This document shows positions 10,016-39,567 of a DNA stretch of 64,000 nt, in pieces; the stretch's first letter is position 1, and each line of letters starts with the position of its first letter. The DNA is taken from assembly GCF_000091045.1 (NCBI RefSeq), contig NC_006686.1, forward strand, positions 223,501 to 287,500, written 5' to 3'. A model generated the notes under the pieces. That model had not been told where the DNA came from, ran no database searches, and worked only from the letters and a program-made list of their open reading frames with translations. The DNA comes from Cryptococcus deneoformans JEC21. Its lineage: Eukaryota; Basidiomycota; Tremellomycetes; Tremellales; Cryptococcaceae. Both the position numbers and the translations under genes were made by a program.

Positions 10016-10518
10016 TGTAAGTGCAGAGCCCTTACCACCATTCATTCTCACCATATGGTAGGATTTATTCCTATGCATTGGTCGATGTTGGTAGGTGAGA
10101 TTTGATGCCGAAACGCGTCTTTCGGACTTCGCCGAAACGCGGCATCGAGCTCTGTCCGGCCTTTTCCTATGCATGATATTTTATTCTCATGCATAGGATC
10201 GGCAATTGCTGCCGAAACGCGGCGGCGGACTTCGCCGGATTTCTGCCCCTTTTTTCGATGGACTTCTGTTTGTTTCTGCATACATCCATACATATATATA
10301 TATATATAGATCTCATACATAGTTATAGTTTTCTCTTTCTCTAAGCGAAACTCATGCATATCAACCATTGCTAGTTTCGCATCCAGTAGACCACTATAAC
10401 TATAAACAAACACCGAACGCTTCCTCGAATGCATCCGAACGCCCTCTAGACCTATACCACGAACGCCCATCCTTCTCGAACGCCAACCGAACGCAGTGAG
10501 GCACCCCCAGTGCCTACA
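10016..10518 (+). mobile_element. A-family LTR (copy A4)
   Basis: The 503-bp LTR is followed directly by the family leader and the first 21 bp of A gag (10519-10582), so it is a 5' LTR. Segment 10369-10379 is the exact complement of the downstream primer site at 10526-10536. A TA-run near 10290-10308 lies upstream of that putative RNA start. Confidence 0.92.
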
Positions 10519-10582
10519 CTTTTTTCGAAACTAGCACCTACCCTTTTACACCATATCCACCATGCCCAAATCAGCTCAGGAC
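10519..10582 (+). mobile_element. A-family leader and start of gag, cut by a second A LTR
   Basis: The 64 bp hold the C plus T-run primer site, a short leader and the ATG of A gag. The gag is interrupted after seven codons by LTR A5. This is what nested insertion of one A element into the gag of another leaves at its left side. It also resembles a very short LTR-flanked (TRIM-like) unit. Confidence 0.85.
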
Positions 10583-11061
10583 TGTAAGTGCAGAGCCCTT
10601 ACCACCATTCATTCTCACCATATGGTAGGATTTATTCCTATGCATTGGTCGATGTTGGTAGGTGAGATTTGATGCCGAAACGCGGCATCGAGCTCTGTCC
10701 GGCCTTTTCCTATGCATGATATTTTATTCTCATGCATAGGACCGGCAATTGCTGCCGAAACGCGGCGGCGGACTTCGCCGGATTTCTGCCCCTTTTTTCG
10801 ATGGACTTCTGTTTGTTTCTGCATACATCCATACATATATATATATATATAGATCTCATACATAGTTATAGTTTTCTCTTTCTCTAAGCGAAACTCATGC
10901 ATATCAACCATTGCTAGTTTCGCATCCAGTAGACCACTATAACTATAAACAAACACCGAACGCTTCCTCGAACGCATCCGAACGCCCTCTAGACCTATAC
11001 CACGAACGCCCATCCTTCTCGAACGCCAACCGAACGCAGTGAGGCACCCCCAGTGCCTACA
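10583..11061 (+). mobile_element. A-family 5' LTR (copy A5)
   Basis: This 479-bp LTR lacks 24 bp that A4 has, between two ccgaaacgcg repeats in the upstream half. That looks like a slippage or recombination deletion. It is followed by the leader and gag-pol of copy G1. Confidence 0.92.
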
Positions 11062-13531: not shown

Positions 13532-14121
13532 TGTAACAACCCAGGGGGGGATGTTCACTGAAAGAGTTCGGCTTGATTTGATTGAAAGAGAGACAGCTGG
13601 AACACGACTGTTGTCTAGTCGGTGGCAAGGAAAGAGGTAGTTGGATTGTCCGGGCGCAGAAGCGGTCTATGAGTTTGCATATGTTTGTTGATCACTGGGC
13701 AGAGTGTCAACGAAGCTATAATTAAAGCACTCAAAAGAACTACAGCAGGTCGCGGACAACCAAAGGAAAAGGGCTCTCTTTCTAAAGATAAAGAAGAAGT
13801 TACAAGCATACCTGGGCAGAGTGTCAACGAAGCTATAATTACTAAAGTCCGCCCAGTTAGCATAAAACCACATTCCAAGTAGGAAGTGGGACTCACAAGC
13901 ACTCAAAAGAACTACAGCAGGTCGCGGACAACCAAAGGAAAAGGGCTCTCTTTCTAAAGATAAAGAAGAGAGGCTTTTCCTTGCTGCAAATTCCTTTGAG
14001 GCCTGTGAGGAGCGCGCAAAATAAACGGAATCAAAATAAGAGAAAAGCGGCAGCAAATCTATGTATGAAGTGAAACAGACCTTGGGATCATAATGACCGT
14101 GTTTGGCATGCATGCCTTACA
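13532..14121 (-). mobile_element. D-family 3' LTR (copy D1)
   Basis: The 590-bp LTR runs on the minus strand from TGTAAGGCATGCATGCC to GGGTTGTTACA. A GGAAGGGGAGGG polypurine tract abuts its start (14122-14133), so it is the 3' LTR of the D element to the right. Internal plan in sense direction: copy 1 exon-like part 13897-13969, intron-like insert 13842-13896 (GTGAGT...TTTAG with TGCTAAC), second part 13812-13841, then a 14-nt stub starting GTATGC (13798-13811), then copy 2 without the insert (13797-13695). Confidence 0.93.
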
Positions 14122-14944
14122 CCCTCCCCTTCCTGAAAAAGGCCATGGTCTTGGAAGAAAAGGCGAGAGCAAGAAAAACTAGGTAAAAAAATAAGTGGGG
14201 TCCATTGGTGAAACAACTAGGCTAAAGGGTAATAAGTGGGGTCCATGTTTGAAAGAAGAAAGAAAAAAGACATCAAAATTACTCCAACAACAACTCATCT
14301 GGGCCATCATACACCTCCCACGCAGCCTTGAAACCATCCCATAACTCGACTTCAACTCGGGGTAGCCACTTGCCAAGGGCTGGCTCACCAACTAACCGGA
14401 CTCGGACCTCCTCAGTGTTCTTCCTGGTGCGGATGTCAAGGACCTCAAGGACCTGGGGGCGAGGTGGAGCTGGGACTTGGGGTTGGAGGGGAGGTGACGA
14501 GGAATGATAGCGTTCAGAGACCACGTAAGGCTTGAGGAGGGAGACATGGCGTCGAGCAGTGTCATTGACGCGAGCAGGGACATCGAGTTCATAGAGGGAT
14601 TGATTTGGAAAAGCTTTGACAATAGTGTAAGGACCATCATAACGTGGGATGAACTTAGCAGAATTTTTGAAGCCTGATGAGGACTTGTATTCATGCCTGA
14701 CATGACGGGTGTTCACCAGCACTTGGTCACCGACCTTGTAAATGGGATCAGGCCGGCGATGTTTGTTGGCTTGAACTGCTTGTCGATGTTTGGCCATGAG
14801 GAGATTGTCTCGTGCTTCCCCTTCGTCGAGCCGCATATGCCGAGCTGCTGCTTCCCATTCGTCTTCCGAAGGTACCATGAACTGCAAGGCTTCGGCAATT
14901 TTCGCTGGAGTGTCAGCCACCAAGGGAGGAACATGAGAGAGACG
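14122..14944 (-). pseudogene. D-family Gypsy pol, C-terminal part and 3' end
   Basis: The minus-strand frame (stop near 14279) encodes the integrase C-terminal region (NKHRRPDPIYKVGDQVLVNT, SAKFIPRYDGP, HVSLLKPYV). It ends in a chromodomain-like tail (QVLEVLDIRTR...ALGKWLPRV...WEVYDGPDEL). About 150 bp of 3' untranslated sequence and the polypurine tract lead into LTR D1. The upstream part continues beyond solo LTR A6. Confidence 0.88.
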
Positions 14945-15445
14945 TGTAGGCACTGGGGGTGCCTCACTGCGTTCGGTTGGCGTTCGAGAAGGATGGGCGT
15001 TCGTGGTATAGGTCTAGAGGGCGTTCGGATGCGTTCGAGGAAGCGTTTGGTGTTTGTTTATAGTTATAGTGGTCTACTGGATGCGAAACTAGCAATGGTT
15101 GATATGCATGAGTTTCGCTTAGAGAAAGAGAAAACTATAACTATGTATGAGATCTATCTATATATATATGTATGGATGTATGCAGAAACAAACAGAAGTC
15201 CATCGAAAAAAGGGGCAGAGATCCGGCGAAGTCCGCCGCCGCGTTTCGGCAGCAATTGCCGGTCCTATGCATGAGAATAAAATATCATGCATAGGAAAAG
15301 GCCGGACAGAGCTCGATGCCGCGTTTCGGCGAAGTCCGAAAAACGCGTTTCGGCATCAAATCTCACCTACCAACATCGACCAATGCATAGGAATAAATCC
15401 TACCATATGGTGAGAATGAATGGTGGTAAGGGCTCTGCACTTACA
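14945..15445 (-). mobile_element. Solo LTR, family A (copy A6), TSD agacg
   Basis: The 501-bp LTR has the perfect 5-bp direct repeat agacg at 14940-14944 and 15446-15450. It interrupts the D pol frame just after FGKRL, and the frame resumes on the other side of the duplication. Confidence 0.95.
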
Positions 15446-15629
15446 AGACGCTTGCCAAAAACCAGCTCGGCAGGAGTGTGCTTGGTTGATGCACGGACAT
15501 GGTTGTTGAGAGCAAAAGCAATGCGCTGCAAATGGTCAGCCCATGTACGCCCACGGATGTCAGTGAGGGTTCGAAGCGACTCGATAACTGATTTGTTGGA
15601 CCGTTCAGAGATACCATCAGTCTGGGGGT
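15446..15629 (-). pseudogene. D-family Gypsy integrase segment
   Basis: This 184-bp piece encodes the end of the integrase core: QTDGISERSNK (with the catalytic Glu), then ALNNHVRASTKHTPAELVFG. It is bounded by solo LTR A6 and solo LTR D2, and joins in frame with its neighbours once one copy of each duplication is removed. Confidence 0.92.
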
Positions 15630-16219
15630 TGTAACAACCCAGGGGGGGATGTTCACTGAAAGAGTTCGGCTTGATTTGATTGAAAGAGAGACGGCTGGAA
15701 CACGACTGTTGTCTAGTCGGTGGCAAGGAAAGAGGTAGTTGGATTGTCCGGGCGCAGAAGCGGTCTATGAGTTTGCATATGTTTGTTGATCACTGGGCAG
15801 AGTGTCAACGAAGCTATAATTAAAGCACTCAAAAGAACTACAGCAGGTCGCGGACAACCAAAGAAAAAGGGCTCTCTTTCTAAAGATAAAGAAGAAGTTA
15901 CAAGCATACCTGGGCAGAGTGTCAACGAAGCTATAATTACTAAAGTCCGCCCAGTTAGCATAAAACCACATTCCAAGTAGGAAGTGGGACTCACAAGCAC
16001 TCAAAAGAACTACAGCAGGTCGCGGACAACCAAAGAAAAAGGGCTCTCTTTCTAAAGATAAAGAAGAGAGGCTTTTCCTTGCTGCAAATTCCTTTGAGGC
16101 CTGTGAGGAGCGCTCAAAATAAACGGAATCAAAATAAGAGAAAAGCGGCAGCAAATCTATGTATGAAGTGAAACAGACCTTGGGATCATAATGACCGTGT
16201 TTGGCATGCATGCCTTACA
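15630..16219 (-). mobile_element. Solo LTR, family D (copy D2), TSD ggggt
   Basis: This 590-bp D LTR has the perfect 5-bp direct repeat ggggt at 15625-15629 and 16220-16224. It inserted in the integrase of a D element, so it is nested in its own family. The intron-like insert is at 15940-15994. D2 carries a G-to-A change relative to D1 in both internal copies (15864 and 16036), the key evidence that the two copies change together. Confidence 0.95.
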
Positions 16220-17367
16220 GGGGTGATATGATGTTGAAAGCATAGACTTGGTGTCGATATGCTTGGTGACATGACGCCAAACCCCAGACTGGAAGATGCT
16301 ACCGCGGTCGGAGACGATGGAGCGAGGGCAGCCGAATTTGGAAAGCCAGTGGTCGTAAAAAAGTCGGGCAACCTCTCGCGCATTTGCTGTGATGGTGGTA
16401 GGAATGAGGACCACATAACCCGTGAGGCGGTCGGTGATGACAATGAGTTGGTCAAAACCTTGCGACGTGGGGAGAGGGCCCACGAAGTCAATGCCAATGT
16501 CGAGAAACTTCGCCTGTGGAACTGGTAGAGAGTGAAGGCGGCCTGCGGGCTTGACAGTAGTGCTCTTGGAAGTCTGACAGGGTGCACACGAGCTTACATA
16601 GTCCACAACATCCTGCCTCATGCCCTCCCAGTAATAGCTGCGGCGCACCATCTCCAATGTCTTCGCTACGCCGAAATGGCCCACATCATCATGACACTGG
16701 CGGATGAAACCTTCTCGGAGCTCACTGGTATCGGGCACACATAGCCTGCCTTCCCATCGCAACACCTGATGTACTCCTTGACCATTCTCAACATTCTCCA
16801 GCGTTACTCCAGGTGCCCTATCCTCCTCTTGCAACCATGCTCCCATGACCTGATCTTGAGCATAGCCTTGCGCGACCTTGGTGATGGTGGATGTGTCATG
16901 GCCGAGGAGACCGAGGACTGCTACACTGACTTCAGCTGTCTCCATACCATCCTGCTCATCGTCGACGCCGCCAAGCCGAGAGAGGGCATCTGCGATGAAG
17001 TTATTGACACCTGAGATGTGGTCAATACGCAAGTCGAACCGGGATAGGATGCCCAGCCAGCGCTTTTGGCGTTCGGATAGGTCGCGCTGTTGGAGGAACC
17101 ATTTGAGAGTGAAGTGGTCGGTCTGAACTTGAATGGGGACATCCAGAAGGAGAGGCCGCCAGAGTTTGAGGGCACGGACGATGGCCAAGAGTTCTTTCTC
17201 ATGTGTTGGATAGTTGCGTTCGGCGGCTGATAAACTGCGAGAGTCGTAAGCAACTGGAAATGCATGATCGGGGTCAGGGCCTTGACCAAGCCAGGCGCCA
17301 GTGCCGTGATTGCTTGCATCAGTGAAAAGGTAGATGGGGCACTCGCCGGTTAACGCAGCTGCATAGT
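16220..17367 (-). pseudogene. D-family Gypsy RNase H to integrase core
   Basis: The minus-strand frame covers RNase H (YLFTDASNHGTGAWLG, HEKELLAIV, ISGVNNFIADALSR), the integrase zinc-binding region (QCHDDVGHFG, CAPCQTSK) and the core with the first two catalytic Asp residues (IGIDFVGPLP, SIVSDRGS). It ends at SYHP where D2 inserted. On the upstream side it stops where the complete E element inserted (TSD atagt) and resumes at 24799. Confidence 0.93.
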
Positions 17368-18310
17368 TGTAAGGTCCGGACAATAGACCTTCACTGAACT
17401 GGTGGGGCTAGCTCGGAGGGACAGGGCTTGGAGAGAACTGGTGGGCTCTTAGGGCTGGCAGGGCTCGAGGCTTAACTTCGGACTGGAGAGGAGCAAACAA
17501 GATCCCAAATGCATATGCTGATTATGTCCTATCAGCGACTAGTAAAGGAGACAAGATGAAGAATTGATAGGAACAAGAGGAGAAGGCAAGGTACTTGTGA
17601 CTGTAAAGTCGGAAGAAGGAAAGGTTGAACACAACAAGGATAAAGGGATAAAGGAATTTGTGCGAAACCCAAAGAGCCCGAAGCTTACCTGATTATGTCC
17701 TATCAGCGACTAGTAAAGGAGACAAGATGAAGAATTGATAGGAACACTGATCAGGATTAGCCAGGGGGTCTGAGGGGAGAAGGTAATTAGTAGAGAGCTC
17801 TGCTTACAGAGGAGAAGGCAAGGTACTTGTGACTGTAAAGTCGGAAGAAGGAAAGGTTGAACACAACAAGGATAAAGGAATAAAGGAATTTGTGTGTCAA
17901 CCTTTCCATGCACTTTGCCTTCGCTCTCGAAACCAGTCGCGACCAAAGCCCGGTAAACACCGGGGCTTGTGGCATGAAAATCGGACAAGAAGCTCGGACT
18001 TAGGACGAGAAATGGAAGAGAAAACAAGAAGAGAAAAAGCGGAAGTAAAATGATGCACGTGACCTGGGAGGGAGAGTGCGGATGCAATTTGACGCGCGCG
18101 ACTTGGAGGAAAGGAGCGGAAGTAAATTGAGACGCGGCTCGGAGAAACAGGGGAAAAATAAAGCACGTGACCTGAGAAAGGGAGCGCGGATGCAATTTGA
18201 CGCGCGCAACTTGGAGGAAAAAAACGGAAGCAAATTGAAACGCGGCTCGAAATTAGAAGCTGGGGAAAGTGGTGACCGTGGGTCACTGGGTCGGAGGCTA
18301 GCCTCTTACA
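17368..18310 (-). mobile_element. E-family 3' LTR with unspliced plus spliced internal copies
   Basis: Sense direction: exon-like part 17894-17808, intron-like insert 17807-17747 (61 nt, GTAAGC...GATCAG, TACTAAT inside), second part 17746-17689, a 26-nt stub beginning GTAAGC (17688-17663), then the same 145 nt without the insert (17662-17518). A polypurine tract (GGAGGGGGAGGG) abuts the LTR start at 18311. Confidence 0.93.
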
Positions 18311-18834
18311 CCCTCCCCCTCCTGGATGAGACGGAGTATGTGAGGGAGAAGAAGGAAATGAGACACACACACAAGGAGGGAGAAAGAAATGAGCTAGAAA
18401 ACTGTAGAAGCTGGGCTTCAAGGAGGGGCCAGGCTGAGAGACAATCCATGAAACATGTTGACTGAGGGAAACCCCCACCACGAAAAAACTCCCTGGCCTT
18501 TTGGCTTCTTTTCAGATTCTTTGTCTGGGGATAAAAAAAATGGGGGGTGGGGGAACCTCTTGTCTGTCTTCAGGCCTGTGAGGAAGGGGGGGAGGAGACT
18601 GGAGGAGAAAAAACGGACGAGAAAAAAAATGAGAAAACACGGCACGAAGGAAAAAAAGGGGGGGAACGAAATTGAAAACCTGGACGGGTGGGCTTGGGGC
18701 TTGATGGGGGGGGGGGGGGGGTGGTTTGGCATCTGTGTGAAGGTGTCAGCCTGGTCTGAGGGGTAGATGAGGAAAAAAAAGGTGTTAGGGAGGGTGTATA
18801 CGGCTCACGACGGAGTGTGGCCATGTCGGGGCCG
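18311..18834 (-). other. E element 3' untranslated region with polypurine tract
   Basis: This lies between the stop of the E gag-pol frame and the 3' LTR. It holds the polypurine tract next to the LTR (18311-18322) and a plus-strand G-run near 18706-18721. No gene is seen. Confidence 0.75.
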
Positions 18835-21800
18835 TTAACCCTGGGTGAACATCTGGGAAACATCAGTAGTAACGTCCAGTACGTCGAGATGTAGCTCATC
18901 TTCGCCAATAAAGTCTTCCCAAGCCTCCTGCCAACCTGCATAGTCCTGCGCCGTATCGCGACTGAGCCACCGAGCCTTGGGGCCTTCGCCGGCGAGGCGG
19001 GCGCGCACTTGATAGACCTTTGGATGATTTCCCTTGGGGGTGAGGGTGCGGTCTTCAAGGATTTGGAGGATGCGTGGCGAGGAAACAGCCGGGCGGTCGA
19101 GTAGGCGAGGAACCGCGTGCTGGTGATACTGTTCGGACTCCCGGTATGGCTTGAGGCGCGAAACATGGCGGCGAGGCGTCGACTGTGTTGAGGTGACGGG
19201 AACATCCAATTCATAGAGTGATTGCTCGGGAAAGGCCTTGAGGATGGTGAAGGGGCCTTCCCAACGGGGCATGAACTTCGCAGAACGGTTAGTGGCTGTC
19301 TTATATTCGTGACGGAACTCAGCTGTGTTCAAGTAGACTTTGTCTCCCGGGCGGTAGACCGGGTCCGGCCGACGATGCTTGTTGGCTTGAACACTTTGCC
19401 GATGCTTAGCGAGAAGCAGTTCGTCACGAGCGATGCCCTCTTCGAGGGCCATGCGTTGGGCAGCGAGATCCCATTCGGAGGCTGTAGGTTGGGCGAGGGA
19501 CTGGTCCGTAGCTGATGTTGAGGGGAGAAACGGCGGAGTGAGTGACAGGCGTTTCCCGAAAACGAGCTCGGCGGGGGTGTGGTGGGTTGAGCGTCGGATG
19601 GTGTTGTTCATTGCGAAGGCGACCCGCTGTAGGTTGGCTGCCCAATTTCGGCCTTGGTCGTCAGTCCAGGTTCGCAGGATCTGGATGACTGTCTTGTTTG
19701 ATCGTTCTGATATACCATCGGTCTGGGGGTGGTATGCTGTGGACATTTTTAGCTTAGTGCCCAGGAGTGAATTCAACCGACGCCATGACGCAGCAGTGAA
19801 TAACTTATCGCGGTCTGAGACGATCGATTGTGGTACCCCATATTTAGAAACCCAGTGGTCGTAGTAGAGTTGAGCGAAAGCGGAGGACGTGAGCGTCGTG
19901 ACTGTTGGTATGAGAGCGACCCAGCCGGTGAGGCGATCGGTAATGACGATGAGATAGTCGAAGCTGTGTGATTGCGGTAGTGGCCCCACGAAGTCTATGC
20001 CTATGTCGGAGAATTTGGCGGGGGGAACTGGTAATGAGTGTAGTAGTCCGGGAGGCTTAGTGGTGGTAGCTTTGGATGTCTGACAGGCTGGGCAAGAGCT
20101 GACAAAGTCCTTTACGTCACTAGCCATACCATCCCAGAAGTACTTACAACGCAGTAGTTCAAGTGTTTTCTCCACCCCGAAATGGCCCATCGCATCGTGG
20201 CATTCCTGTAGGCACTGTTCTCGTAAGGTCAGTACTTCGGGGATGCAGAGCCGGTCCTCGTATGTCAGCACCGTCCTGACCCCCCGTGCTCCGTTGACTT
20301 CGGCTGTGTGGACACCCGGAGGGCAGCGGTCTACTTCCCTCCAAATGCTCATGACTGGGTCCTGCCCATACCCCTCAGCCACTGCATCCAGGAAAGCTGC
20401 GTTTGGTGAGAGAACCATCATGGTGAGGGCGTTGACGTGGGCGTCGGAGTTGCGGAGCCGGGAGAAAGCGTCGGCGATGACATTAGTGGCCCCTGGAATA
20501 TGGGAAATCTGGAGGTCGTAATCGGCGAGTACTAGTAGCCATCGCTTCTGACGTTCGGACAGATTTGGTTGTTGAAAGAACCACTTGAGAGTCGCATGGT
20601 CCGTCATGACGTGCACTGGGACGCCGAGAAGTAGAGGCCGCCACTCTTTGAGGGCGTGGATGATGGCGCATAACTCTTTTTCGTGTACCGGATAATTTCG
20701 TTCGGCGGCGGTGAGAGAGCGGGAATCGTAGGCGATAGGTTGAGCGTTGTCGGGGGATAGACCCGTGCCCAACCAGGCGCCGAGGCCGGTGTTGCTTGCG
20801 TCGGTGAAAAGGTAGAGATTGGTTTTACCTGCGAGGATAGCTTCATGGGAAAGGGGGGACAGACCTGTGATACGTGCCACCATTTCCTTCAGCGCCTCAA
20901 ACGCGTCTTGCGCCGACGTTGTCCACTTCCATACCCAACTCAGTGATTCTAATCGCTCAGCTGGGAGGCCCTTAGCCAGTTGACGTTTACGGGATTCATA
21001 CGCTTTCTCTGCTGTCTTGTTCGGAGGGAGAAGAGCCGTGAGAACGGACGTCTTGGTGGCGATGTGTGGGATGAATTTGCGTAAATATTGGAGAAGGCCA
21101 AGAAAAGATCGGAGGTCTTTCACACAACCAGGAGATGGCCATGCGCGTAGTGCTTCGACTTTCTTCGGATCTGGCCCAATGTGATTGGGGGAGATTACGT
21201 GGCCCAGGAAGGAGACTGAGTCGACGAAAAATTTCGACTTGCTAGGCGAGCAAACAAACCCGCTGTTATGTAAAGCCGTGAGAACCGCGCGAATATTTTT
21301 CGCTAAGTCAGAGTCGGTCGCGCCCCAAATGATGATATCATCGACATAAGCTTCACAACAAACGCTGATGAGGTTACGTAAAGCCTCGTTGAGGCGGCGT
21401 TGTTGTGTTGCCGGCGAGTTGCACGCGCCTTGCGGCATCACAACCCATTCGTATAAACCCCAGGGAGTGCTAATTGCCGTTTTCTCGATATCGGGCTCGT
21501 GCATGAGCGTCTGAAAAAATGCATCGGTAAGGTCGAGTTTGGCGAAAACCTTGCCACGGGCGGCGCGTTGGAGAATGTCGTCAATGTTGGGAACCGGGGT
21601 GCGATCTTTAACCGTGACACTGTTGAGGCCGCGAAAATCGCAGAGGAACCGGAATTTGCCATTTTCTTTCTTAATGAGGAAAGCAGGGGCGGCCCAAGGG
21701 GAACTGGATGGACGGAGGCGGCCTGCGGTACGGTGTTTCTCGATTTCTTGTCGAAGGGTGTCGCGCCACGCTAACGGTACTCGAAATCCAGCTCGAGCGA

Positions 21801-23793
21801 CAGGCATCGCATCAGGAAGAATGTTTATTCGGTGGCGGACTTGGGAGGTGGACGAACAAATGGGCGGGTAGTGGGAGACATCAGAGATATTGGCTGGAAG
21901 GATGTCGGCAAATTCACGGAGGATGGCGTCGGAGTGGGAGTGGCGTTCAGTGCTTACGGTCGGGGATTCGACTGGTGTGATGGAGTTGAGTTGTAGTTGC
22001 ACAAGCGATGTATAGGATGACCCCCCTGCATTGAGGAGGTGATTTAAACGCTCCGCCCCATCAAATAGGCGGTGTTGACGACAGAACTGTAATCCGAGGA
22101 TAAGGCGGTATCGTGGGCCAAGGGCCATGGCGTAGAATGGGGTAGCGTTGTAGGTAGTGTCACCAATGATTACATCCACTACATACTCCTGGTCTACGAC
22201 TGGACCCGCCCGATTGTCTGCCATTTTGGTCCCCACCGGTATAATCGGCCGTCCTTGCCATCCCTGTTGCTCTGCGTACGCCCGGTCGACGACGTTGATG
22301 CCAGCGCCACAATCAACGAGTGCTGGGACAGGGTCTCCGTCAGCCTTGAAACGGCAATTGACCATGATGAGAGGTACTGACCCAGCGAGCGCAGACGAGG
22401 CATCCTGTACTAGAGTGTCTGTGACAGGGTCGACAGCGAAAACGCCGTGGTGGTCGGACTCGTCGTCGTCGGCAAGGGAGACGAGGTTAGCGACCGGCAC
22501 GGACGCGGAGGCATTGGGCGGGGTGGAGGGGGGGCGGGTTGGGCAGATAAGGCGGTGATGGCCGACAACGCGGCATGAGAAACACGCGTTGATGCTTTGA
22601 AGATAGGCGCGGGCGGATCGGCCGGCGTCACCGAGGGGGAGCCGTTTGGCGGGGTCGAGCCAGTCGAGCTGTTGCGTAGTGTGGCCCTTCGTGGTGGTGG
22701 AGGGGGCGGGGGCGAGTTTGGCAATGAGTGGAGGCGCGGGGACGGGAGCGATGACGTTGGCGACGGTTGGTGGGTAGCGGGGGCGTGTCGGCACCTGAAG
22801 GAAACGCGCCTCAAGCATGGCGTCATCGATGACGTCCATCATGATCTCATATAGGTCGGCCGACGTTGCGGAGAGCACCGTTTTGCCACGTGCGCGGAGA
22901 GCAGCTTTGGTGCGGTGAGTAACCAAGGCATCGACACCGTCCAATAGTCGGCGGTTGACGTCCACGTCGCTGAGGGGGTCCTCGAAGTCATGAAGAATGC
23001 CTTGGTAACTGATAACAAGGTGAAAGAATGCATCGAACGCGGCGGGTGTGGTGTCCAAGCAGCGGAGCTGCATGAATCGGTGGCGGAGTTTGGACTCCCA
23101 GCCGCGGGCGAGAATGTGAGACTTAAGGGAGACTTGCCATGCATCCCAAGTTTCGGCGTGTTTGCCATGGAGCTCGAGCCACGTGGTGAACCGGCCGCCC
23201 GATTGGGAGATCGAGGTATTTGCCACCGAAATCTTCCACGCGTGCTCAGCCGGGCCGGGGCTCCAGTGTAGGAGGGCGTCACGGAAATAGGTCTCCAAAG
23301 CGAGGAGGTGTCGCTGGAGTGCAAACGGGTCGGCGGAGGAGTGGGTCCCAAGTCGCGGCGGGGAGATCTTGTCCGGGCGGGACCCGCGTGTGGAGGGGGG
23401 GACGTGACGGTCGTTGCTGGTGGTGGCTTGATCGGCTAGCGCTTGGGTTGAACGGAGGAGTCCGGCAACAATAGATTTAAGCTCGTCGATCTCAGGAACG
23501 GCCGGGCCGGAAAAGGCAGTGGTGAGGCCCGGGGTCTTTCGGTAGGTTACACCCGTGGTGTCGTGTACAGGGGTGGTGTAGGTTACCAGCTTTTCGTCGG
23601 TTGTGTCAGGCACCGAAGGCACCGCGTTAGAAGTTGTGGGCGAAGCCAACTTGTCTCCGGAGCCCGCGGACGATAGGTGGTCTTCCGTGAAAGTGCCGAA
23701 GATGGGAACGCCAGTGGGGTGATGCCCGATGATGGGACGGGAAGTCACCTCGTCGTACGCAATGATGGGTTGGCCCTGAGAGTCGAACGCCAT
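18835..23793 (-). CDS. E-family Gypsy Gag-Pol polyprotein, intact frame
   Basis: One uninterrupted frame of about 1650 codons encodes the proteins that package and copy the element. I chose the ATG at 23793 (MAFDSQGQPI), 62 bp after the 5' LTR, because the open frame to its left has no other ATG and runs into the LTR. Order: gag; CCHC knuckle (CFSCRVVGHHRLIC, about residue 430); protease with LVDCGAG (Cys where Thr or Ser is usual); reverse transcriptase with CDFRGLN, KLDLTDAFFQ and YVDDIIIWG; RNase H (YLFTDASNTG, IPGATNVIADAFSR); integrase HHCC (ECHDAMGHFG, CPACQTSK) and D,D,E core (DFVGPLP, SIVSDRD, TDGISERSNK). A chromodomain-like tail near the end (RILQILEDRT...KARWLSRD) lacks clear aromatic-cage residues. 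Gag and pol lie in one frame with no stop or shift between them. Confidence 0.95.
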   Translation of the reverse strand: MAFDSQGQPIIAYDEVTSRPIIGHHPTGVPIFGTFTEDHLSSAGSGDKLASPTTSNAVPSVPDTTDEKLVTYTTPVHDTTGVTYRKTPGLTTAFSGPAVPEIDELKSIVAGLLRSTQALADQATTSNDRHVPPSTRGSRPDKISPPRLGTHSSADPFALQRHLLALETYFRDALLHWSPGPAEHAWKISVANTSISQSGGRFTTWLELHGKHAETWDAWQVSLKSHILARGWESKLRHRFMQLRCLDTTPAAFDAFFHLVISYQGILHDFEDPLSDVDVNRRLLDGVDALVTHRTKAALRARGKTVLSATSADLYEIMMDVIDDAMLEARFLQVPTRPRYPPTVANVIAPVPAPPLIAKLAPAPSTTTKGHTTQQLDWLDPAKRLPLGDAGRSARAYLQSINACFSCRVVGHHRLICPTRPPSTPPNASASVPVANLVSLADDDESDHHGVFAVDPVTDTLVQDASSALAGSVPLIMVNCRFKADGDPVPALVDCGAGINVVDRAYAEQQGWQGRPIIPVGTKMADNRAGPVVDQEYVVDVIIGDTTYNATPFYAMALGPRYRLILGLQFCRQHRLFDGAERLNHLLNAGGSSYTSLVQLQLNSITPVESPTVSTERHSHSDAILREFADILPANISDVSHYPPICSSTSQVRHRINILPDAMPVARAGFRVPLAWRDTLRQEIEKHRTAGRLRPSSSPWAAPAFLIKKENGKFRFLCDFRGLNSVTVKDRTPVPNIDDILQRAARGKVFAKLDLTDAFFQTLMHEPDIEKTAISTPWGLYEWVVMPQGACNSPATQQRRLNEALRNLISVCCEAYVDDIIIWGATDSDLAKNIRAVLTALHNSGFVCSPSKSKFFVDSVSFLGHVISPNHIGPDPKKVEALRAWPSPGCVKDLRSFLGLLQYLRKFIPHIATKTSVLTALLPPNKTAEKAYESRKRQLAKGLPAERLESLSWVWKWTTSAQDAFEALKEMVARITGLSPLSHEAILAGKTNLYLFTDASNTGLGAWLGTGLSPDNAQPIAYDSRSLTAAERNYPVHEKELCAIIHALKEWRPLLLGVPVHVMTDHATLKWFFQQPNLSERQKRWLLVLADYDLQISHIPGATNVIADAFSRLRNSDAHVNALTMMVLSPNAAFLDAVAEGYGQDPVMSIWREVDRCPPGVHTAEVNGARGVRTVLTYEDRLCIPEVLTLREQCLQECHDAMGHFGVEKTLELLRCKYFWDGMASDVKDFVSSCPACQTSKATTTKPPGLLHSLPVPPAKFSDIGIDFVGPLPQSHSFDYLIVITDRLTGWVALIPTVTTLTSSAFAQLYYDHWVSKYGVPQSIVSDRDKLFTAASWRRLNSLLGTKLKMSTAYHPQTDGISERSNKTVIQILRTWTDDQGRNWAANLQRVAFAMNNTIRRSTHHTPAELVFGKRLSLTPPFLPSTSATDQSLAQPTASEWDLAAQRMALEEGIARDELLLAKHRQSVQANKHRRPDPVYRPGDKVYLNTAEFRHEYKTATNRSAKFMPRWEGPFTILKAFPEQSLYELDVPVTSTQSTPRRHVSRLKPYRESEQYHQHAVPRLLDRPAVSSPRILQILEDRTLTPKGNHPKVYQVRARLAGEGPKARWLSRDTAQDYAGWQEAWEDFIGEDELHLDVLDVTTDVSQMFTQG

Positions 23794-23837
23794 GATGTAT
23801 GTTGGTGTGGTGGGGTGTGGTATGAATTGATTTGGGT

Positions 23838-23855
23838 AATGAGTTTGAAAAAAAG
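23838..23855 (-). promoter_or_regulatory. Putative primer-binding site of the E element
   Basis: Immediately after the 5' LTR end CCTTACA the minus strand reads CTTTTTTTCAAACTCATT. The same C plus T-run plus (C)AAAC layout follows the 5' LTRs of families A, C and F. No TGG start is present, and I found no long complement inside the E LTR. Confidence 0.5.
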
Positions 23856-24798
23856 TGTAAGGTCCGGACAATAGACCTTCACTGAACTGGTGGGGCTAGC
23901 TCGGAGGGACAGGGCTTGGAGAGAACTGGTGGGCTCTTAGGGCTGGCAGGGCTCGAGGCTTAACTTCGGACTGGAGAGGAGCAAACAAGATCCCAAATGC
24001 ATATGCTGATTATGTCCTATCAGCGACTAGTAAAGGAGACAAGATGAAGAATTGATAGGAACAAGAGGAGAAGGCAAGGTACTTGTGACTGTAAAGTCGG
24101 AAGAAGGAAAGGTTGAACACAACAAGGATAAAGGGATAAAGGAATTTGTGCGAAACCCAAAGAGCCCGAAGCTTACCTGATTATGTCCTATCAGCGACTA
24201 GTAAAGGAGACAAGATGAAGAATTGATAGGAACACTGATCAGGATTAGCCAGGGGGTCTGAGGGGAGAAGGTAATTAGTAGAGAGCTCTGCTTACAGAGG
24301 AGAAGGCAAGGTACTTGTGACTGTAAAGTCGGAAGAAGGAAAGGTTGAACACAACAAGGATAAAGGAATAAAGGAATTTGTGTGTCAACCTTTCCATGCA
24401 CTTTGCCTTCGCTCTCGAAACCAGTCGCGACCAAAGCCCGGTAAACACCGGGGCTTGTGGCATGAAAATCGGACAAGAAGCTCGGACTTAGGACGAGAAA
24501 TGGAAGAGAAAACAAGAAGAGAAAAAGCGGAAGTAAAATGATGCACGTGACCTGGGAGGGAGAGTGCGGATGCAATTTGACGCGCGCGACTTGGAGGAAA
24601 GGAGCGGAAGTAAATTGAGACGCGGCTCGGAGAAACAGGGGAAAAATAAAGCACGTGACCTGAGAAAGGGAGCGCGGATGCAATTTGACGCGCGCAACTT
24701 GGAGGAAAAAAACGGAAGCAAATTGAAACGCGGCTCGAAATTAGAAGCTGGGGAAAGTGGTGACCGTGGGTCACTGGGTCGGAGGCTAGCCTCTTACA
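23856..24798 (-). mobile_element. E-family 5' LTR
   Basis: The 943-bp LTR is indistinguishable by eye from the 3' LTR. Its intron-like insert is at 24235-24295. It is followed in the sense direction by the short leader and gag. Confidence 0.94.
24235..24295 (-). other. Intron-like segment within E 5' LTR
   Basis: The 61-nt segment starts GTAAGCAGAG and ends CTGATCAG in the sense direction. It contains TACTAAT and a CTAAT 12 nt or so before the AG. The second internal copy of the flanking segment lacks exactly these 61 nt. Confidence 0.75.
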
Positions 24799-26639
24799 AT
24801 AGTCCAATGGCCGGAGGCCAGAAATCTCCGCCACTTTCGCCTTCAGAATCTCAAACGCGGCGGTCGCTTCACTAGACCATGCCCAGACCCATGACAGGAC
24901 ATCCTTGGGGGACTGGCCCTTCCGGAGTGCACGCTGTTGCTTCTCCCAGGCTTTCTCGGCGGCTGGAGTCGGCGGGAGGAGGGCGGTGAGGGTTCGTGTG
25001 TGGGTAGCTAGGCTCGGTATGAATTTTCTGAGGTATTGAAGGAGGCCTAGAAAGGATCGCAGCTCTTTGACGGACTGAGGGAGCGGCCAGGAGGCGATGG
25101 TGCGGAGTTTGGCGGGGTCTGGGCCGATGTGGTTGGCGGATATCACGTGACCAAGAAATTTGACTTTGTGGCGAAAAAATTCAGACTTGGTGGGAGAGCA
25201 CACAAGCCCCGATTTTCGTAAGGCAGCCAGCACTGCTCGCAACCGTTTGTCAAGATCCTCGGCATCAGCAGCCCAGACAATGATATCATCAACATAAGCC
25301 TCACAAGAATCCCCCAGCAACCCACGGAGGGCCTCATTTAGTCGGCGTTGTTGAGTAGCAGGTGAGTTGCAAGCACCTTGTGGCATAACTACCCATTCAA
25401 ATAGGCCGAGTTCGGTAGTAATGGCTGTTTTTTCGATGTCTGGTTCATGCATAAGTGTTTGGAAGAAGGCATCAGACAGGTCAATTTTGGCAAAGATTTT
25501 ACCACAAGCAGCTCGATGGAGGATGTCGTCGACATTGGGAACTGGCGTGGAGTCTGGAGTAGTGACTTTGTTAAGGCCCCGATAATCACAGATAAACCGA
25601 AATTTTCCATTCTCCTTCTTAACCAAGAACGCCGGTGCTGCCCACGGCGAACTGGAGGGTCGCAATCGGCCAGCCTCCCGATGTTTCTGGATCTCTTCAA
25701 TTAACTGCTGTCGCCACATGTGAGGGGATCGATAACTCGCGGATTTGAAGGGTATCGCACCGGGGGTGAGGTTGATATGGTGGCGGACCTTTGAGTTGGC
25801 ATCACAGATCGGTGGGTAATTTGCAACTTCACCAATATTGTCTGGGAAAATGTCGTGATACTCATGCAGGATTGCTAGGCGGAGGTCCTCATACCCATCA
25901 GCGGTCGTCACTGAAGCAACCACGGGGCCAAGGAGGTCAGGAGCGAGATTGCCTAGCCGAGAAGCACCGCTGAGGAGCCCATGAGAGCGGATGAAATCCA
26001 GGCCTAGGATGACTTTATAGCGGGCATGTAGGGGCATGACATAACCATGTAGTGCGAAGACTTGATTCTGGATGCATACCTCTACTCCTACACGACGTTG
26101 TAAAGCTGGACCCTGTGCTCCTCCTGCTAACGATACCACCCGCCGTTGCTCTGATGGATAAGTTTGGAGTTGGTGGGTGGTGATGAGGGACGGATCAACT
26201 AGAGTGACTGTTGCTCCTGTGTCGAAGAGGGCGAGGAAGGGTGACCCATTAGTGCCTATGCGACATTCGAGAAGGATGGGTGGGACTGACAGCTCCGGCG
26301 CAAGGTGTGTGGCTAATACCTCGGCAAACGTCTCCCCCTCCTCCTGCTCAAATTCCGCTTCCTCATGGTCGAAGGTGCTTACAGCAGCGATTGCCGTGGG
26401 TTCCTTGCGCTTTGGGCAGTCGGGAGACTTGTGACCGGGTTGGCGGCAGAGGAAGCATCGCTGTTCACTGGCAAGGTGAGCTCGAGCGCGGCGACCAGCA
26501 CCACCCTTGGGGAGCGGAAGTCGTGGGTTGAGCCATTGAGCAATGTCGATGGGCGAAGACACTTCGGGCGAGACAGCAGCGATCGGCGTGCGGGTGGGCG
26601 CGATGGGGGCGAAAGCGGACTGGTAGCGAAGGAGTCTGG
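24799..26639 (-). pseudogene. D-family Gypsy gag end, protease and reverse transcriptase
   Basis: The minus-strand frame holds the end of gag with a CCHC knuckle (CFLCRQPGHKSPDC), protease (ALFDTGATVTLVD), reverse transcriptase (CDYRGLNKV, KIDLSDAFFQ, YVDDIIVWA) and the connection up to KVAEISGLRPLDY, where the E element inserted. The gag N-terminal part and the 5' LTR are missing, because at 26639 the sequence joins LTR D3 in the opposite orientation. The chance frame running on into the E LTR at the low-coordinate side is not element protein. Confidence 0.93.
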
Positions 26640-27229
26640 TGTAAGGCATGCATGCCAAACACGGTCATTATGATCCCAAGGTCTGTTTCACTTCATACAT
26701 AGATTTGCTGCCGCTTTTCTCTTATTTTGATTCCGTTTATTTTGCGCGCTCCTCACAGGCCTCAAAGGAATTTGCAGCAAGGAAAAGCCTCTCTTCTTTA
26801 TCTTTAGAAAGAGAGCCCTTTTCCTTTGGTTGTCCGCGACCTGCTGTAGTTCTTTTGAGTGCTTGTGAGTCCCACTTCCTACTTGGATTGTGGTTTTATG
26901 CTAACTGGGCGGACTTTAGTAATTATAGCTTCGTTGACACTCTGCCCAGGTATGCTTGTAACTTCTTCTTTATCTTTAGAAAGAGAGCCCTTTTCCTTTG
27001 GTTGTCCGCGACCTGCTGTAGTTCTTTTGAGTGCTTTAATTATAGCTTCGTTGACACTCTGCCCAGTGATCAACAAACATATGCAAACTCATAGACCGCT
27101 TCTGCGCCCGGACAATCCAACTACCTCTTTCCTTGCCACCGACTAGACAACAGTCGTGTTCCAGCCGTCTCTCTTTCAATCAAATCAAGCCGAACTCTTT
27201 CAGTGAACATCCCCCCCTGGGTTGTTACA
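26640..27229 (+). mobile_element. D-family LTR (copy D3), inverted relative to D1
   Basis: This 590-bp LTR is on the plus strand. Left flank tctgg and right flank accgg do not match. The right flank is the exact reverse complement of the left flank of D1 (ccggt), because both sit at the same base of mirror copies of A pol. Copy 1 runs 26792-26949 with the insert at 26865-26919. The stub beginning GTATGC is at 26950-26963. Copy 2 without the insert runs 26964-27066. Confidence 0.94.
26865..26919 (+). other. Intron-like segment within LTR D3
   Basis: 55 nt, starting GTGAGTCCC, with ATGCTAACTGG near its 3' end (branch-site-like CTAAC) and ending GACTTTAG. The downstream internal copy reads straight from GAGTGCTT (27036) into TAATTATAG (27037), so the insert is exactly absent there. 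Confidence 0.8.
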
Positions 27230-29655
27230 ACCGGGAGGGGGAACTGCTCAACACGTGCTATTTTGGCGGGGTCGGGCAGAATCTGTCCGGGGCGGATGAT
27301 GTGGCCTAAGAACGCTACTTCGTCGAGGAACAGCTTTGACTTCTCACGCGAGCAGCGAAGACCACTTCGACGTAGAGCAGAAAGAACACTCACAATATTA
27401 TCATGCAGGTCCTTCGCATCCTTCCCCCAGATGATGATATCGTCCACGTAAGCCTCGCAACATTCCCCAGTTAAACCTTGTAACGCCTCATTAATGCGAC
27501 GCTGTTGAGCGGCCGGCGCATTCCGGATCCCTTGAGGCATTACCACCCACTCTAGGAGACCGAGAGGAGTGGTGATAGCGGTTTTCGGGATGTCCTCCTC
27601 CTTCATTAGCGTTTGGAAAAAGGCATCCTTACAGTCAAGTTTTGCGAAAATCTTGCCCTTCCTGGCGGCACGGTGGAGGATATCCTGGACATTCCCCATA
27701 GGGTACATGTCGGGGACCGTGACGTTGTTCAGAGCGCGGAAATCACAGACCATTCGGAATTTGCCATTACCTTTGGACACGAGGAACGCCGGGGAGGCCC
27801 AAGGGGAACTAGAGTATCGAAGACGTCCTGCATTCAGATGTTCTAATAACATCTCTCGGAAACGTGGAAGCAGGGCTTCCGGTACTCGATAGGGTGGCGA
27901 GCGGTGGGGAGTAGCACCATGTTTCAAGTTAATTTCGAAGCGCACGCCAGACTTTGTTTTGGAGATGGTGGGGAAATTTCGCACGTCGCCTAGGTCGTCG
28001 CAGAAAACATCGTGGAATTCGGTCTGAAGCTTGCGTAGAACATCCGTCAGACTGTCGGACTCGGCGGCCGCGCGGGTCTGCGAAAGATTGGGGCGGGTGT
28101 CGGCGAATGACACTGTGGCGGTAGTCGAGGCGGGATTTGCGGCGGCGTGGGAAACTGGCGCACCTAACTGTTGCAAGCCTAACACAGACAAGTTCACACC
28201 GCCCGCCTCCAATAACCGAACGAAAGAATTTGATTCCGCGAGTAATCCGTGCCGCGCGAAGAAATTTAGTCCTAAGATACCATCGTAGGTACCGTGCAGA
28301 TCCATCAGGACACCATCGACTCGATACATGCGACCACCTAGGGAAAACGACCCGACGACCATATCTGTGACCAACGGACCCGCCAAACCTCCGGCTAGAC
28401 GCACTCGCATCCGTACCAACCCTTTCCTCACTTCCCAGCCCAGTCTCGCCGCCAACCTCGGATCCACAAAAGTTGTGGACGCCCCCGTGTCGAGTAAGAA
28501 TTTAGGGGAGGGGGCTGATAAACGGCTGTCAGCAGAGACTGGGACGGATATGGAGAGCAAAGGATGGAAAAGAGCGTACATCGCGTCACAGGTATCATCA
28601 TCGGCTGGAGGAACGGTTTGGGCTAACGTCAGATAGGCCGAGGTGGCATCGCCTGCCGTCAGTTCGGTCTCGAGTTGGTTGACCTTAGGAGTCGGAGCGC
28701 GTGTACGGGTAGGGCACTTGGAATGCTGATGCCCCGTTTTACGACAATCGTAGCATCGGTTCTCCTTGCGGAAGACTTCACGGATATGGCGGCCCGCCGG
28801 GGAGAGATAGTATGGCAGAGCGTGGGAAGGGTCGTGATAGTAGGACATGGAGTGGGGTAATTGGACGTTGTCGGAAGAAACCTGGTTGGTGGGACGGGAC
28901 CTAATCCGAGAGGCGGCATCCTCGTGTTGAATTCGTTCGACGTGGTTGCTGATCAAGGCCCGCAGTGCGTCCAGATCGTCGACGTGAAATTCGGGCAAGT
29001 CAACCAAGCGAAGGAAAAGGCGCTCGGGACAGGCCGCACGGTAAAAACTGGTGAGTTGTTGGTCGGTCGGGTATAGCTTGCTCCCAAGGAGGTGGGCACG
29101 GTGCAAAATCACTGCATTGTCGAATTTTTTCCAACCCTCCGACGACACCTCGTGGAAGGAGAGGCGAAAAAGAGCACGGCTTTCGCGGAACTCCCAGTTG
29201 GACGGCATGGCCTTAGCCTTGAAGGCAGCTGACCACGTCTCCCATGTCGTTATTCCATCGGCCTCCATACGGCGACCGTCTTGCTCAACCCAACCAACGA
29301 GACCAGCGCACTCAATCGAATTGTTCGCCAGCTCAATCACTGTCACACGGCGTCTCTCTTCCACCTCCTCGTCATCCGAGGGAGTCAGAAGGCCGTGTGT
29401 TCGCAAAACCTGTTGAAGCCGACGCAAATGGGTAAGGGCGCGGTCCGCATCGCCAAGGGGACCCTCGAAACGAGGGATGTCTGACGCCTTGGGCAATGGT
29501 ATACCTCGGGGTGTATAACGTTCCTTGGTAGCTGATAGTTTGTTTTGTTTAGCCAGCAGCTCAGTGAGGAGCGCCAGCGTATCGTCTTGTTGTTGGACGC
29601 GGTCGACCAGACGCGCGAGTAACTCCGTTGGAGAGTCCTGAGCTGATTTGGGCAT
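27230..29655 (-). pseudogene. A-family Gypsy gag-pol copy G2, mirror of G1
   Basis: Same content and same truncation point as G1 (gag, CYDCRKTGHQHSKC, LLDTGAS, YVDDIIIWG, ends at RVEQFPLP), on the minus strand. Only a few residues differ in the coding part, for example Leu for His after AHL, His for Asn before VERI, Met for Thr in DATYALF, Asp for Asn after TTFV, and Arg for Lys before KGLVRM. The leader 29656-29698 and LTR A10 follow upstream in the sense direction. Confidence 0.93.
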
Positions 29656-29698
29656 GGTGGATATGGTGTAAAAGGGTAGGTGCTAGTTTCGAAAAAAG

Positions 29699-30201
29699 TG
29701 TAGGCACTGGGGGTGCCTCACTGCGTTCGGTTGGCATTCGAGAAGGATGGGCGTTCGTGGTATAGGTCTAGAGGGCGTTCGGATGCGTTCGAGGAAGCGT
29801 TCGGTGTTTGTTTATAGTTATAGTGGTCTACTGGATGCGAAACTAGCAATGGTTGATATGCATGAGTTTCGCTTAGAGAAAGAGAAAACTATAACTATGT
29901 ATGAGATCTATATATATATATATATGTATGGATGTATGCAGAAACAAACAGAAGTCCATCGAAAAAAGGGGCAGAAATCCGGCGAAGTCCGCCGCCGCGT
30001 TTCGGCAGCAATTGCCGGTCCTATGCATGAGAATAAAATATCATGCATAGGAAAAGGCCGGACAGAGCTCGATGCCGCGTTTCGGCGAAGTCCGAAAAAC
30101 GCGTTTCGGCATCAAATCTCACCTACCAACATCGACCAATGCATAGGAATAAATCCTACCATATGGTGAGAATGAATGGTGGTAAGGGCTCTGCACTTAC
30201 A
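29699..30201 (-). mobile_element. A-family 5' LTR of copy G2 (copy A10)
   Basis: The 503-bp LTR ends next to the G2 leader. Unlike its mirror partner A5 it has no 24-bp deletion. Confidence 0.92.
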
Positions 30202-30668
30202 CCACGTCTCCCATGTCGTTATTCCATCGGCCTCCATACGGCGACCGTCTTGCTCAACCCAACCAACGAGACCAGCGCACTCAATCGAATTGTTCGCCAG
30301 CTCAATTACTGTCACACGGCGTCTCTCTTCCACCTCCTCGTCATCTGAGGGAGTCAGAAGGCCGTGCGATCGCAAAACCTGTTGAAGCCGACGCAAATGG
30401 GTAAGGGCGCGGTCTGCATCGCCAAGGGGACCCTCGAAGCGAGGGATGTCTGACGCCTTGGGCAATGGTATACCTCGGGGTGTATAACGTTCCTTGGTAG
30501 CTGATAGTTTGTTTTGTTTAGCCAGCAGCTCAGTGAGGAGCGCCAGCGTATCGTCTTGTTGTTGGACGCGATCGACCAGACGCGCGAGCAACTCCGTTGG
30601 AGAGTCTTGAGCTGATTTGGGCATGGTGGATATGGTGTAAAAAAGGTAGGTGCTAGTTTCGAAAAAAG
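30202..30668 (-). pseudogene. A-family leader and gag N-terminal fragment between two LTRs
   Basis: The ATG at 30624 starts the A gag frame (MPKSAQDSPTELL). It stays open until it meets the start of LTR A10 after a coding stretch ending at TWETW. On the other side lies the leader and LTR A11. This mirrors the 10519-10582 piece but keeps about 400 bp more of gag, so the break points differ. Confidence 0.9.
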
Positions 30669-39087: not shown

Positions 39088-39567
39088 TGGATTGTCCAGG
39101 CGCAGAAGCGGTCTATGAGTTTGCATATGTTTGTTGATCACTGGGCAGAGTGTCAACGAAGCTATAATTAAAGCACTCAAAAGAACTACAGCAGGTCGCG
39201 GACAACCAAAGGAAAAGGGCTCTCTTTCTAAAGATAAAGAAGAAGTTACAAGCATACCTGGGCAGAGTGTCAACGAAGCTATAATTACTAAAGTCCGCCC
39301 AGTTAGCATAAAACCACAATCCAAGTAGGAAGTGGGACTCACAAGCACTCAAAAGAACTACAGCAGGTCGCGGACAACCAAAGGAAAAGAACTCTCTTTC
39401 TAAAGATAAAGAAGAGAGGCTTTTCCTTGCTGCAAATTCCTTTGAGGCCTGTGAGGAGCGCACAAAATAAACGGAATCAAAATAAGAGAAAAGCGGCAGC
39501 AAATCTATGTATGAAGTGGAACAGACCTTGGGATCATAATGACCGTGTTTGGCATGCATGCCTTACA
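39088..39567 (-). mobile_element. Truncated D-family LTR (copy D4)
   Basis: 480 bp of a D LTR. The sense-direction end (about 110 bp up to GTTGTTACA) is missing where the C element's 5' LTR begins. The intron-like insert is at 39288-39342. Copy 1 has a private change (gggctc to gaactc near 39390) that copy 2 lacks. Confidence 0.92.

What the first reader, a model, noticed from the sequence alone, without database searches (positions are those of the whole stretch)
13532..27229. D-family LTRs carry an unspliced and a spliced copy of the same segment in tandem
In the sense direction each full D LTR (D1, D2, D3) reads: part 1, a 55-nt insert GTGAGT...TGCTAAC...TTTAG, part 2 ending CTCTGCCCAG, a 14-nt stub GTATGCTTGTAACT, then parts 1 and 2 again exactly without the insert, then TGATCAAC. 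In D3 the insert is 26865-26919 and the fused junction is 27036/27037. The insert has donor, branch-like site and acceptor of a fungal intron, so the second copy looks reverse-transcribed from spliced RNA.
Basis: partly seen in the sequence, partly recalled or inferred. Interest (0 to 1): 0.93.

Follow-up and report, generated by a model that had tools for sequence, protein, structure and literature searches.

The report
LTR carrying intron plus spliced twin
Two families of jumping genes in a Cryptococcus-like yeast carry, inside their end repeats, an intron-bearing segment followed by its already-spliced twin, which may be how an element that copies itself through spliced RNA keeps its intron.

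Summary
Each D LTR reads exon 1, a 55-nt GT-AG intron, exon 2, a stub with donor GTATGC, exon 1-exon 2 without the intron, then U5. Of 26 full D LTRs found in the host genome (probably C. neoformans JEC21), 19 are tandem and 7 single spliced. A second family in the window (E), with LTRs unlike D's and pol 57% identical in part, has the same design. Of its 57 exon2-U5 sites, 31 are tandem, 6 single with intron, 16 show only a spliced join (12 read as single spliced), and one each is double- and triple-spliced. Within an LTR the two E copies change together (1.41 versus 3.48 differences; 0 of 100,000 shuffles), and copy 2's 5' edge is the most variable stretch. Best reading: copy 2 is rewritten by reverse transcription. 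RNA starts at copy 1 and loses intron 1 and a second intron (stub plus copy 2); its strong-stop cDNA equals copy 2 plus U5, lands on copy 2 of the 3' LTR, and so preserves copy 1 with its intron. Origin from spliced RNA is near certain, the repeating cycle likely. No RNA evidence was available.

The parts
26640..27229 (+). D3 LTR, 590 nt, tandem form
26792..26864 (+). D3 copy 1, exon 1; its 5' edge is the inferred transcription start
   Evidence: edge set by where copies 1 and 2 stop matching
26865..26919 (+). D3 intron 1, 55 nt, GTGAGT...TGCTAAC...TTTAG (branch motif recognised from recall)
26920..26949 (+). D3 copy 1, exon 2, ending CTCTGCCCAG
26950..26963 (+). D3 stub, start of inferred intron 2 (donor GTATGC); the last T could belong to copy 2
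26964..27066 (+). D3 copy 2: exon 1 fused to exon 2 at 27036/27037; inferred landing site of strong-stop cDNA and rest of intron 2 (TTGAC branch-like site by eye, CAG acceptor)
27067..27229 (+). D3 U5 (inferred exon 3)
13532..14121 (-). D1 LTR, tandem form; intron 13896-13842, stub 13811-13798
15630..16219 (-). D2 LTR, solo with TSD ACCCC; intron 15994-15940, stub 15909-15896; carries one substitution in both copies
39088..39567 (-). fourth D LTR, cut short in U5; intron 39342-39288, stub 39257-39244
23856..24798 (-). E-family 5' LTR, 943 nt: copy 1 exon 1 24382-24296, intron 24295-24235, exon 2 24234-24177, stub 24176-24151, copy 2 24150-24006, U5 24005-23856
17368..18310 (-). E-family 3' LTR, identical to the 5' LTR: copy 1 exon 1 17894-17808, intron 17807-17747, exon 2 17746-17689, stub 17688-17663, copy 2 17662-17518, U5 17517-17368
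18835..23871 (-). E-family gag-pol frame (protease, RT, RNase H, integrase; Ty3/gypsy order)
24385..26658 (-). part of a D-family gag-pol frame (protease, RT), cut by the E and D3 insertions

Best explanation
The D and E LTRs hold a 5'-leader intron together with a pre-spliced copy that acts as a landing site for first-strand transfer. (1) Transcription starts at the 5' edge of copy 1 [inferred]. (2) Intron 1 (55 nt in D, 61 nt in E) and intron 2 (stub plus all of copy 2, ending at the CAG before U5) are spliced out, giving exon 1-exon 2-U5 [inferred; at least one such splicing is recorded in the DNA of each family, or of their ancestor]. (3) That leader has the same sequence as copy 2 plus U5 [shown]. 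(4) The minus-strand strong-stop cDNA made from it anneals to copy 2 in the 3' LTR of the genomic RNA, and extension copies the stub, copy 1 with its intron, and U3 [inferred]. (5) The new element therefore keeps copy 1 with its intron, while copy 2 is rewritten from the spliced copy 1 [inferred from concerted change and the variable copy-2 edge]. (6) If the cDNA lands on copy 1, or the RNA is only partly spliced, the single spliced, single intron-bearing and multi-copy forms result [forms shown; route inferred].
For: Two families with dissimilar LTRs (best blastn E 0.067; pol 57% aa identity over 386 aa) share the design, including the join of copy 2 to U5 exactly at the exon-2/GT boundary. 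In E, copies 1 and 2 of one LTR differ at 1.41 core positions on average against 3.48 between LTRs; 0 of 100,000 re-pairings were as low; 9 of 21 variable core columns have a variant present in both copies of at least one LTR, three of the nine touching one 3-nt deletion (17 distinct of 31 tandem LTRs, 14 with the same core dropped). In exon 2, one variant is in both copies of 7 of 31 E LTRs and never in one copy alone; another is in both copies of L098 and in copy 1 alone of 3. In D, 3 of 19 LTRs carry a substitution in both copies. The five most haplotype-rich 16-nt windows of the E LTR, of 233, are those at copy 2's 5' edge (11-14 haplotypes, median 4). One variant there, GGGTT-A-CACAC, has the base that precedes CACAC in copy 1. 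Forms interleave on a U3 tree: S needs 11 changes in 12 rows, at least 5 forced by well supported branches. A D element with target duplication CTGAG has both LTRs in the single spliced form, as expected if the form arises in reverse transcription. In E, the six donor bases of intron 1 and of the stub show no variation in the 31 tandem LTRs, nor do the last 18 nt of copy-1 exon 2. Insert sizes fit the C. neoformans introns reported in PMC3990503 section 9: median 56 nt, 65 nt in 5' UTRs.
Against: No transcript, cap-site or poly(A) data were available, so splicing and the start site are inferred. The single forms U and S can also arise by deletion between the direct repeats. Some differences are confined to one copy: 5 of 21 columns have copy-1-only and 12 of 21 have copy-2-only variants in at least one LTR; in D, L011 and L012 have one-copy changes, and the fourth window copy has two changed bases in copy 1 alone. 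The D donor of the stub is GTAGGC in 2 of 19. L090 carries copy-2 variants of another lineage, but its U5 does not carry that lineage's markers, so copy 2 and U5 are not always inherited together. L082 and the window E element have a U5 unlike that of most LTRs of their U3 group. The model needs the RNA's 3' end to lie beyond copy 2; this is unknown. No other species' LTR DNA was examined.
Confidence: 0.7

Rival explanations
1. One-off fossil: in each family (or in their common ancestor) a spliced strong-stop cDNA was once joined downstream of an unspliced copy; the tandem was then passed on by ordinary transposition of unspliced RNA, and copy 2 has no role.
For: Explains the exact intron-less second copy and both splice boundaries. 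Needs no repeating cycle.
Against: Does not explain why variants are shared by both copies of one LTR, nor why copy 2's 5' edge is the most variable stretch.
Confidence: 0.12
2. Tandem made once from spliced RNA, then kept alike by DNA gene conversion or unequal exchange between the two copies; the single and multiple forms are deletion and exchange products.
For: Crossing within exon 1 gives exactly the single spliced form and within exon 2 exactly the single intron-bearing form; exchange could also give the double- and triple-spliced LTRs.
Against: Conversion should at times remove the intron from copy 1 or put it into copy 2. All 31 two-copy E LTRs of the tandem class have the intron in the first copy and a spliced second copy; only L107 and L108 have intron-less repeated copies. 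It does not predict a variable copy-2 edge or a D element with both LTRs single spliced.
Confidence: 0.15
3. The 55/61-nt inserts are not introns but insertions or deletions in one copy that happen to have GT-AG ends.
For: No RNA evidence was available here.
Against: Two families agree in donor type, size, place and a second donor exactly at the end of copy 1; donor bases do not vary among 31 tandem E LTRs.
Confidence: 0.03

Closest known systems
Ty3/gypsy LTR retrotransposons of C. neoformans (Tcn2-Tcn5 group; TCN3 may be D)
   Same: Protease-RT-RNase H-integrase frame, LTRs with TG...CA ends and 5-bp target duplications, copies clustered in one region per contig, as told for centromeric Tcn1-6 in PMC7175516 and PMC3990503 (passages). 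PMC12810828 (passages seen) gives TCN3 as about 6.3 kb with 606-bp LTRs and a 4.7-kb ORF; tandem D LTRs are 588-590 bp with frames up to 1571 aa.
   Different: An intron-bearing and a spliced copy inside the LTR are not mentioned in the passages I saw. The naming of D as TCN3 is a guess from size; no TCN3 sequence was compared.
SpIREs, spliced LINE-1 copies (PMC5860796, search listing and start of abstract only)
   Same: Intra-5'UTR splicing leaves spliced copies in the genome.
   Different: LINE-1 is not an LTR element. From recall, spliced copies there are dead ends; here spliced and unspliced copies sit side by side in families with many near-identical tandem LTRs.
Penelope-like elements that keep introns (PMC3846280, passages seen)
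   Same: A retroelement class that keeps introns through retrotransposition.
   Different: There intron retention is put down to an antisense or perhaps unspliced template; here the element would use spliced RNA and keep the intron through a duplicated landing site.
Split-intron retroviral vectors (recalled, not looked up)
   Same: Use strand transfer to rearrange splice sites around the LTR.
   Different: Engineered; no natural regenerating spliced copy.

Membership tests
Ty3/gypsy LTR retrotransposon | RT-RNase H upstream of integrase in one polyprotein | tested here: met
   E frame: protease 509, RT 733, RNase H 1018, integrase zinc domain 1215, rve 1292-1382 (rve below Pfam's cut-off); D pieces carry protease-RT and RNase H-integrase
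Ty3/gypsy LTR retrotransposon | paired LTRs with short target duplication | tested here: met
   E element 24798-17368, LTRs identical, TSD ACTAT; D pairs ATCAT and CTGAG
Ty3/gypsy LTR retrotransposon | tRNA-type primer site (TGG...) after the 5' LTR | tested here: not met
   D and E 5' LTRs are followed by CTTTT...; the review PMC7175516 says Tcn2-5 may prime in a new way. Not required of all members of the group (recall)
Spliceosomal intron | GT-AG ends, branch-like motif, size usual for the host | tested here: met
   D 55 nt with TGCTAAC, E 61 nt with CTAAT/CTGAT, motifs judged by eye from recall; host median 56 nt, 65 nt in 5' UTRs (PMC3990503)
Spliceosomal intron | removed from RNA | not testable with these tools
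   No RNA reads held; intron-less twin copies in DNA are indirect evidence
Tcn3 | sequence identity with published Tcn3 | not tested
   No Tcn3 sequence was compared

The most novel reading that the evidence does not exclude
A self-renewing, intron-preserving LTR: the element carries a cDNA of its own spliced leader as a landing site, rewrites it from spliced RNA each round, and so propagates spliceosomal introns through a spliced RNA intermediate. Two families with wholly dissimilar LTRs keep the design.
Probability: 0.6. Interest if true: 0.93.

Novelty: new variant of a known kind. Interest (0 to 1): 0.86.

Why it matters
Reverse transcription of spliced RNA should erase introns, so how a retroelement could keep one is an open puzzle. 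This design would solve it with nothing but a duplicated segment and ordinary strand transfer. It would leave a natural genomic record of transcription start, splicing isoforms and strand transfer for each element. In C. neoformans, introns modulate expression (PMC3990503, section 9) and slowly spliced introns trigger RNAi (SCANR, as told in a passage of PMC7175516), so an LTR intron that survives transposition bears on both expression and silencing of these elements.

Tried and rejected
F and G families (LTRs starting TGTAAGTGCAGAG): 14 starts in the window examined, no tandem intron design seen; only window copies were looked at. L034, a 72% relative of the D LTR, holds only a single intron-less copy; it may be old and was not used to root anything. 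The hope that copy 2 and U5 would always travel together was not borne out (L090, L082, window E). U and S forms were first taken as proof of splicing; rejected as proof, because deletion between the direct repeats gives the same products. Two E sites first counted as single spliced (L113, L120) turned out on checking to be cut by other sequence just upstream and cannot be typed. No description of the tandem was found in the held library (searches; only listings and the passages named were seen). The key older paper on these families (Goodwin and Poulter 2001, PMID 11427969) is known to me only through passages on it in PMC7175516 and was not read, so prior description there cannot be excluded.
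Full report
The observation. D3 reads, in the sense direction, exon 1 (26792-26864), a 55-nt GTGAGT...TTTAG insert (26865-26919), exon 2 (26920-26949), a GTATGC stub (26950-26963), exon 1-exon 2 fused (26964-27066) and U5 (27067-27229). D1, D2 and a truncated fourth copy agree. The stub has 4 matches in the window and none in 100 shuffles. The window lies in a 19,051,922-base genome of 14 contigs; with Cryptococcus proteins as best hits, the host is probably C. neoformans var. neoformans JEC21 (inference).

D across the genome. One search found 45 matches (a lower bound). Among the loci held, 26 D LTRs are full: 19 tandem (588-590 bp) and 7 single spliced (416-418 bp). Insert ends are GTGAGT in 19 of 19 and TTTAG in 18 of 19; the stub donor is GTATGC in 17 and GTAGGC in 2; both copies end CTCTGCCCAG in 19 of 19. 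Three of 19 tandem LTRs (L006, L015, L019) carry an exon substitution in both copies; L011 and L012 carry changes in one copy only. Copy 2's 5' edge has extra bases in L017 and L019. Eleven of the 26 (7 tandem, 4 single spliced) have a target duplication directly around a lone LTR. One element has both LTRs single spliced with duplication CTGAG, and one has both tandem with ATCAT.

A second family. A scan for tandem copies differing by a GT-AG insert found a second design at 24295-24235 and 17807-17747, minus strand. It belongs to an element 24798-17368 with identical 943-nt LTRs and TSD ACTAT. Its LTR reads exon 1 (87 nt), 61-nt intron GTAAGC...CTGATCAG, exon 2 (58 nt), 26-nt stub starting GTAAGC, fused copy, U5. 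The same scan of the window and all 106 loci then held gave no third family. D and E LTRs are not alike (best E 0.067), but their RNase H-integrase regions are 57% identical over 386 aa, so the design may descend from one ancestor or have arisen twice.

Forms of E. One search listed 49 matches (40 of 69 candidates scored). The 39 pieces fetched, plus the two window LTRs, gave 31 tandem, 5 single with intron (U), 3 single spliced (S) and 2 truncated. Four pattern searches found 37 stubs, 40 intron-1 donors, 57 exon2-U5 joins and 53 spliced joins, with no match to the reversed patterns. Sorted by place, the 57 joins are 31 tandem, 6 U, 16 with a spliced join only, 1 double-spliced, 1 triple-spliced, 1 stub-plus-spliced without donor, and 1 alone; 2 stubs and 3 donors had no join. 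Of the 16, 12 were read as single spliced, 2 are cut just upstream and cannot be typed (L113, L120), and 2 were not read. All 6 U were read. Reading the DNA confirmed the double and triple forms (L107, L108).

Concerted change. Over 72 alignment columns of exon 1, the two copies of an LTR differ at 1.41 positions on average, copies from different LTRs at 3.48, and 0 of 100,000 re-pairings reached the observed value (17 distinct of 31). Of 21 variable columns, 9 have a variant in both copies of at least one LTR, 5 have a copy-1-only and 12 a copy-2-only variant in at least one. In exon 2, the C at 568 has its partner in copy 2 in the same 7 of 31 LTRs; the T at 569, in copy 1 of 4 LTRs, is also in copy 2 of one of them, L098. 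L090's copy 2 carries four variants of another lineage, which suggests transfer between two RNAs, but its U5 does not follow.

The rewritten edge. In 16-nt windows stepped over the E LTR, the five richest in haplotypes of 233 are those starting at 641-657, the start of copy 2 (11-14 haplotypes, median 4); windows at the start of copy 1 have 2-7. That is where a strong-stop cDNA's 3' end would be joined to the acceptor RNA. The variant GGGTT-A-CACAC carries the base found before CACAC in copy 1.

Form switching. On a tree of U3 (50 rows; L113 and L120 not placed; L121 long and unsure; bootstrap not settled), S needs 11 changes in 12 rows, at least 5 forced by well supported branches; U needs 6 in 6, at least 3 forced; the two multi-spliced LTRs form one clade (99/94). 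S labels are no more clustered than shuffled ones (381 of 500 shuffles as low). A single spliced LTR cannot regain the intron alone, so repeated loss from a persistent tandem state is the simplest reading (inference).

Mechanism. The fully spliced leader equals copy 2 plus U5, so its strong-stop cDNA fits copy 2 of the 3' LTR exactly; extension then preserves the stub and the intron-bearing copy 1 and rewrites copy 2. Partly spliced RNA or landing on copy 1 would give U, S and multi-copy forms. Gene conversion could also keep the copies alike, and direct-repeat deletion could also make U and S; I give these routes 0.15 together. Splicing, start site and poly(A) site are inferred throughout. 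Intron sizes fit those of C. neoformans (median 56 nt, 65 nt in 5' UTRs; PMC3990503 section 9), and the same section reports frequent low-level retention of UTR introns, which would supply partly spliced RNAs.

Literature. I saw passages of PMC7175516, PMC12810828, PMC2864245, PMC3990503 (and its section 9 in full), PMC3846280 and PMC8022950, and search listings otherwise. None of what I saw describes an intron-bearing and a spliced copy in one LTR; Goodwin and Poulter 2001 was not read.

Noticed in passing
D, E and F LTRs; e.g. after 23856 and after 29698 on the minus strand: The bases right after the 5' LTR are CTTTTTT(T) in three families, not a TGG tRNA primer site; a shared unusual primer site is possible.
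   Followed up: partly
L107 and L108 (G000:C2:877160-878010 and 880750-881780): E LTRs with two and with three spliced copies separated by stubs, without intron 1.
   Followed up: partly
17368-18310 and 23856-24798: The E LTR's U3 holds a 95-nt unit repeated 108 nt apart, 86% identical.
   Followed up: no
29232-31172 and 10016-11061: F-family LTRs and adjacent sequence stand in tandem (spacing 969-970 and 567).
   Followed up: no
L034 (G000:C3:789864-793043): A 72% relative of the D LTR with a single intron-less copy, possibly an old single spliced form.
   Followed up: partly
5255-8038: A 927-aa Ty1/copia-type frame (integrase, RVT_2) stands among the Ty3/gypsy elements.
   Followed up: no
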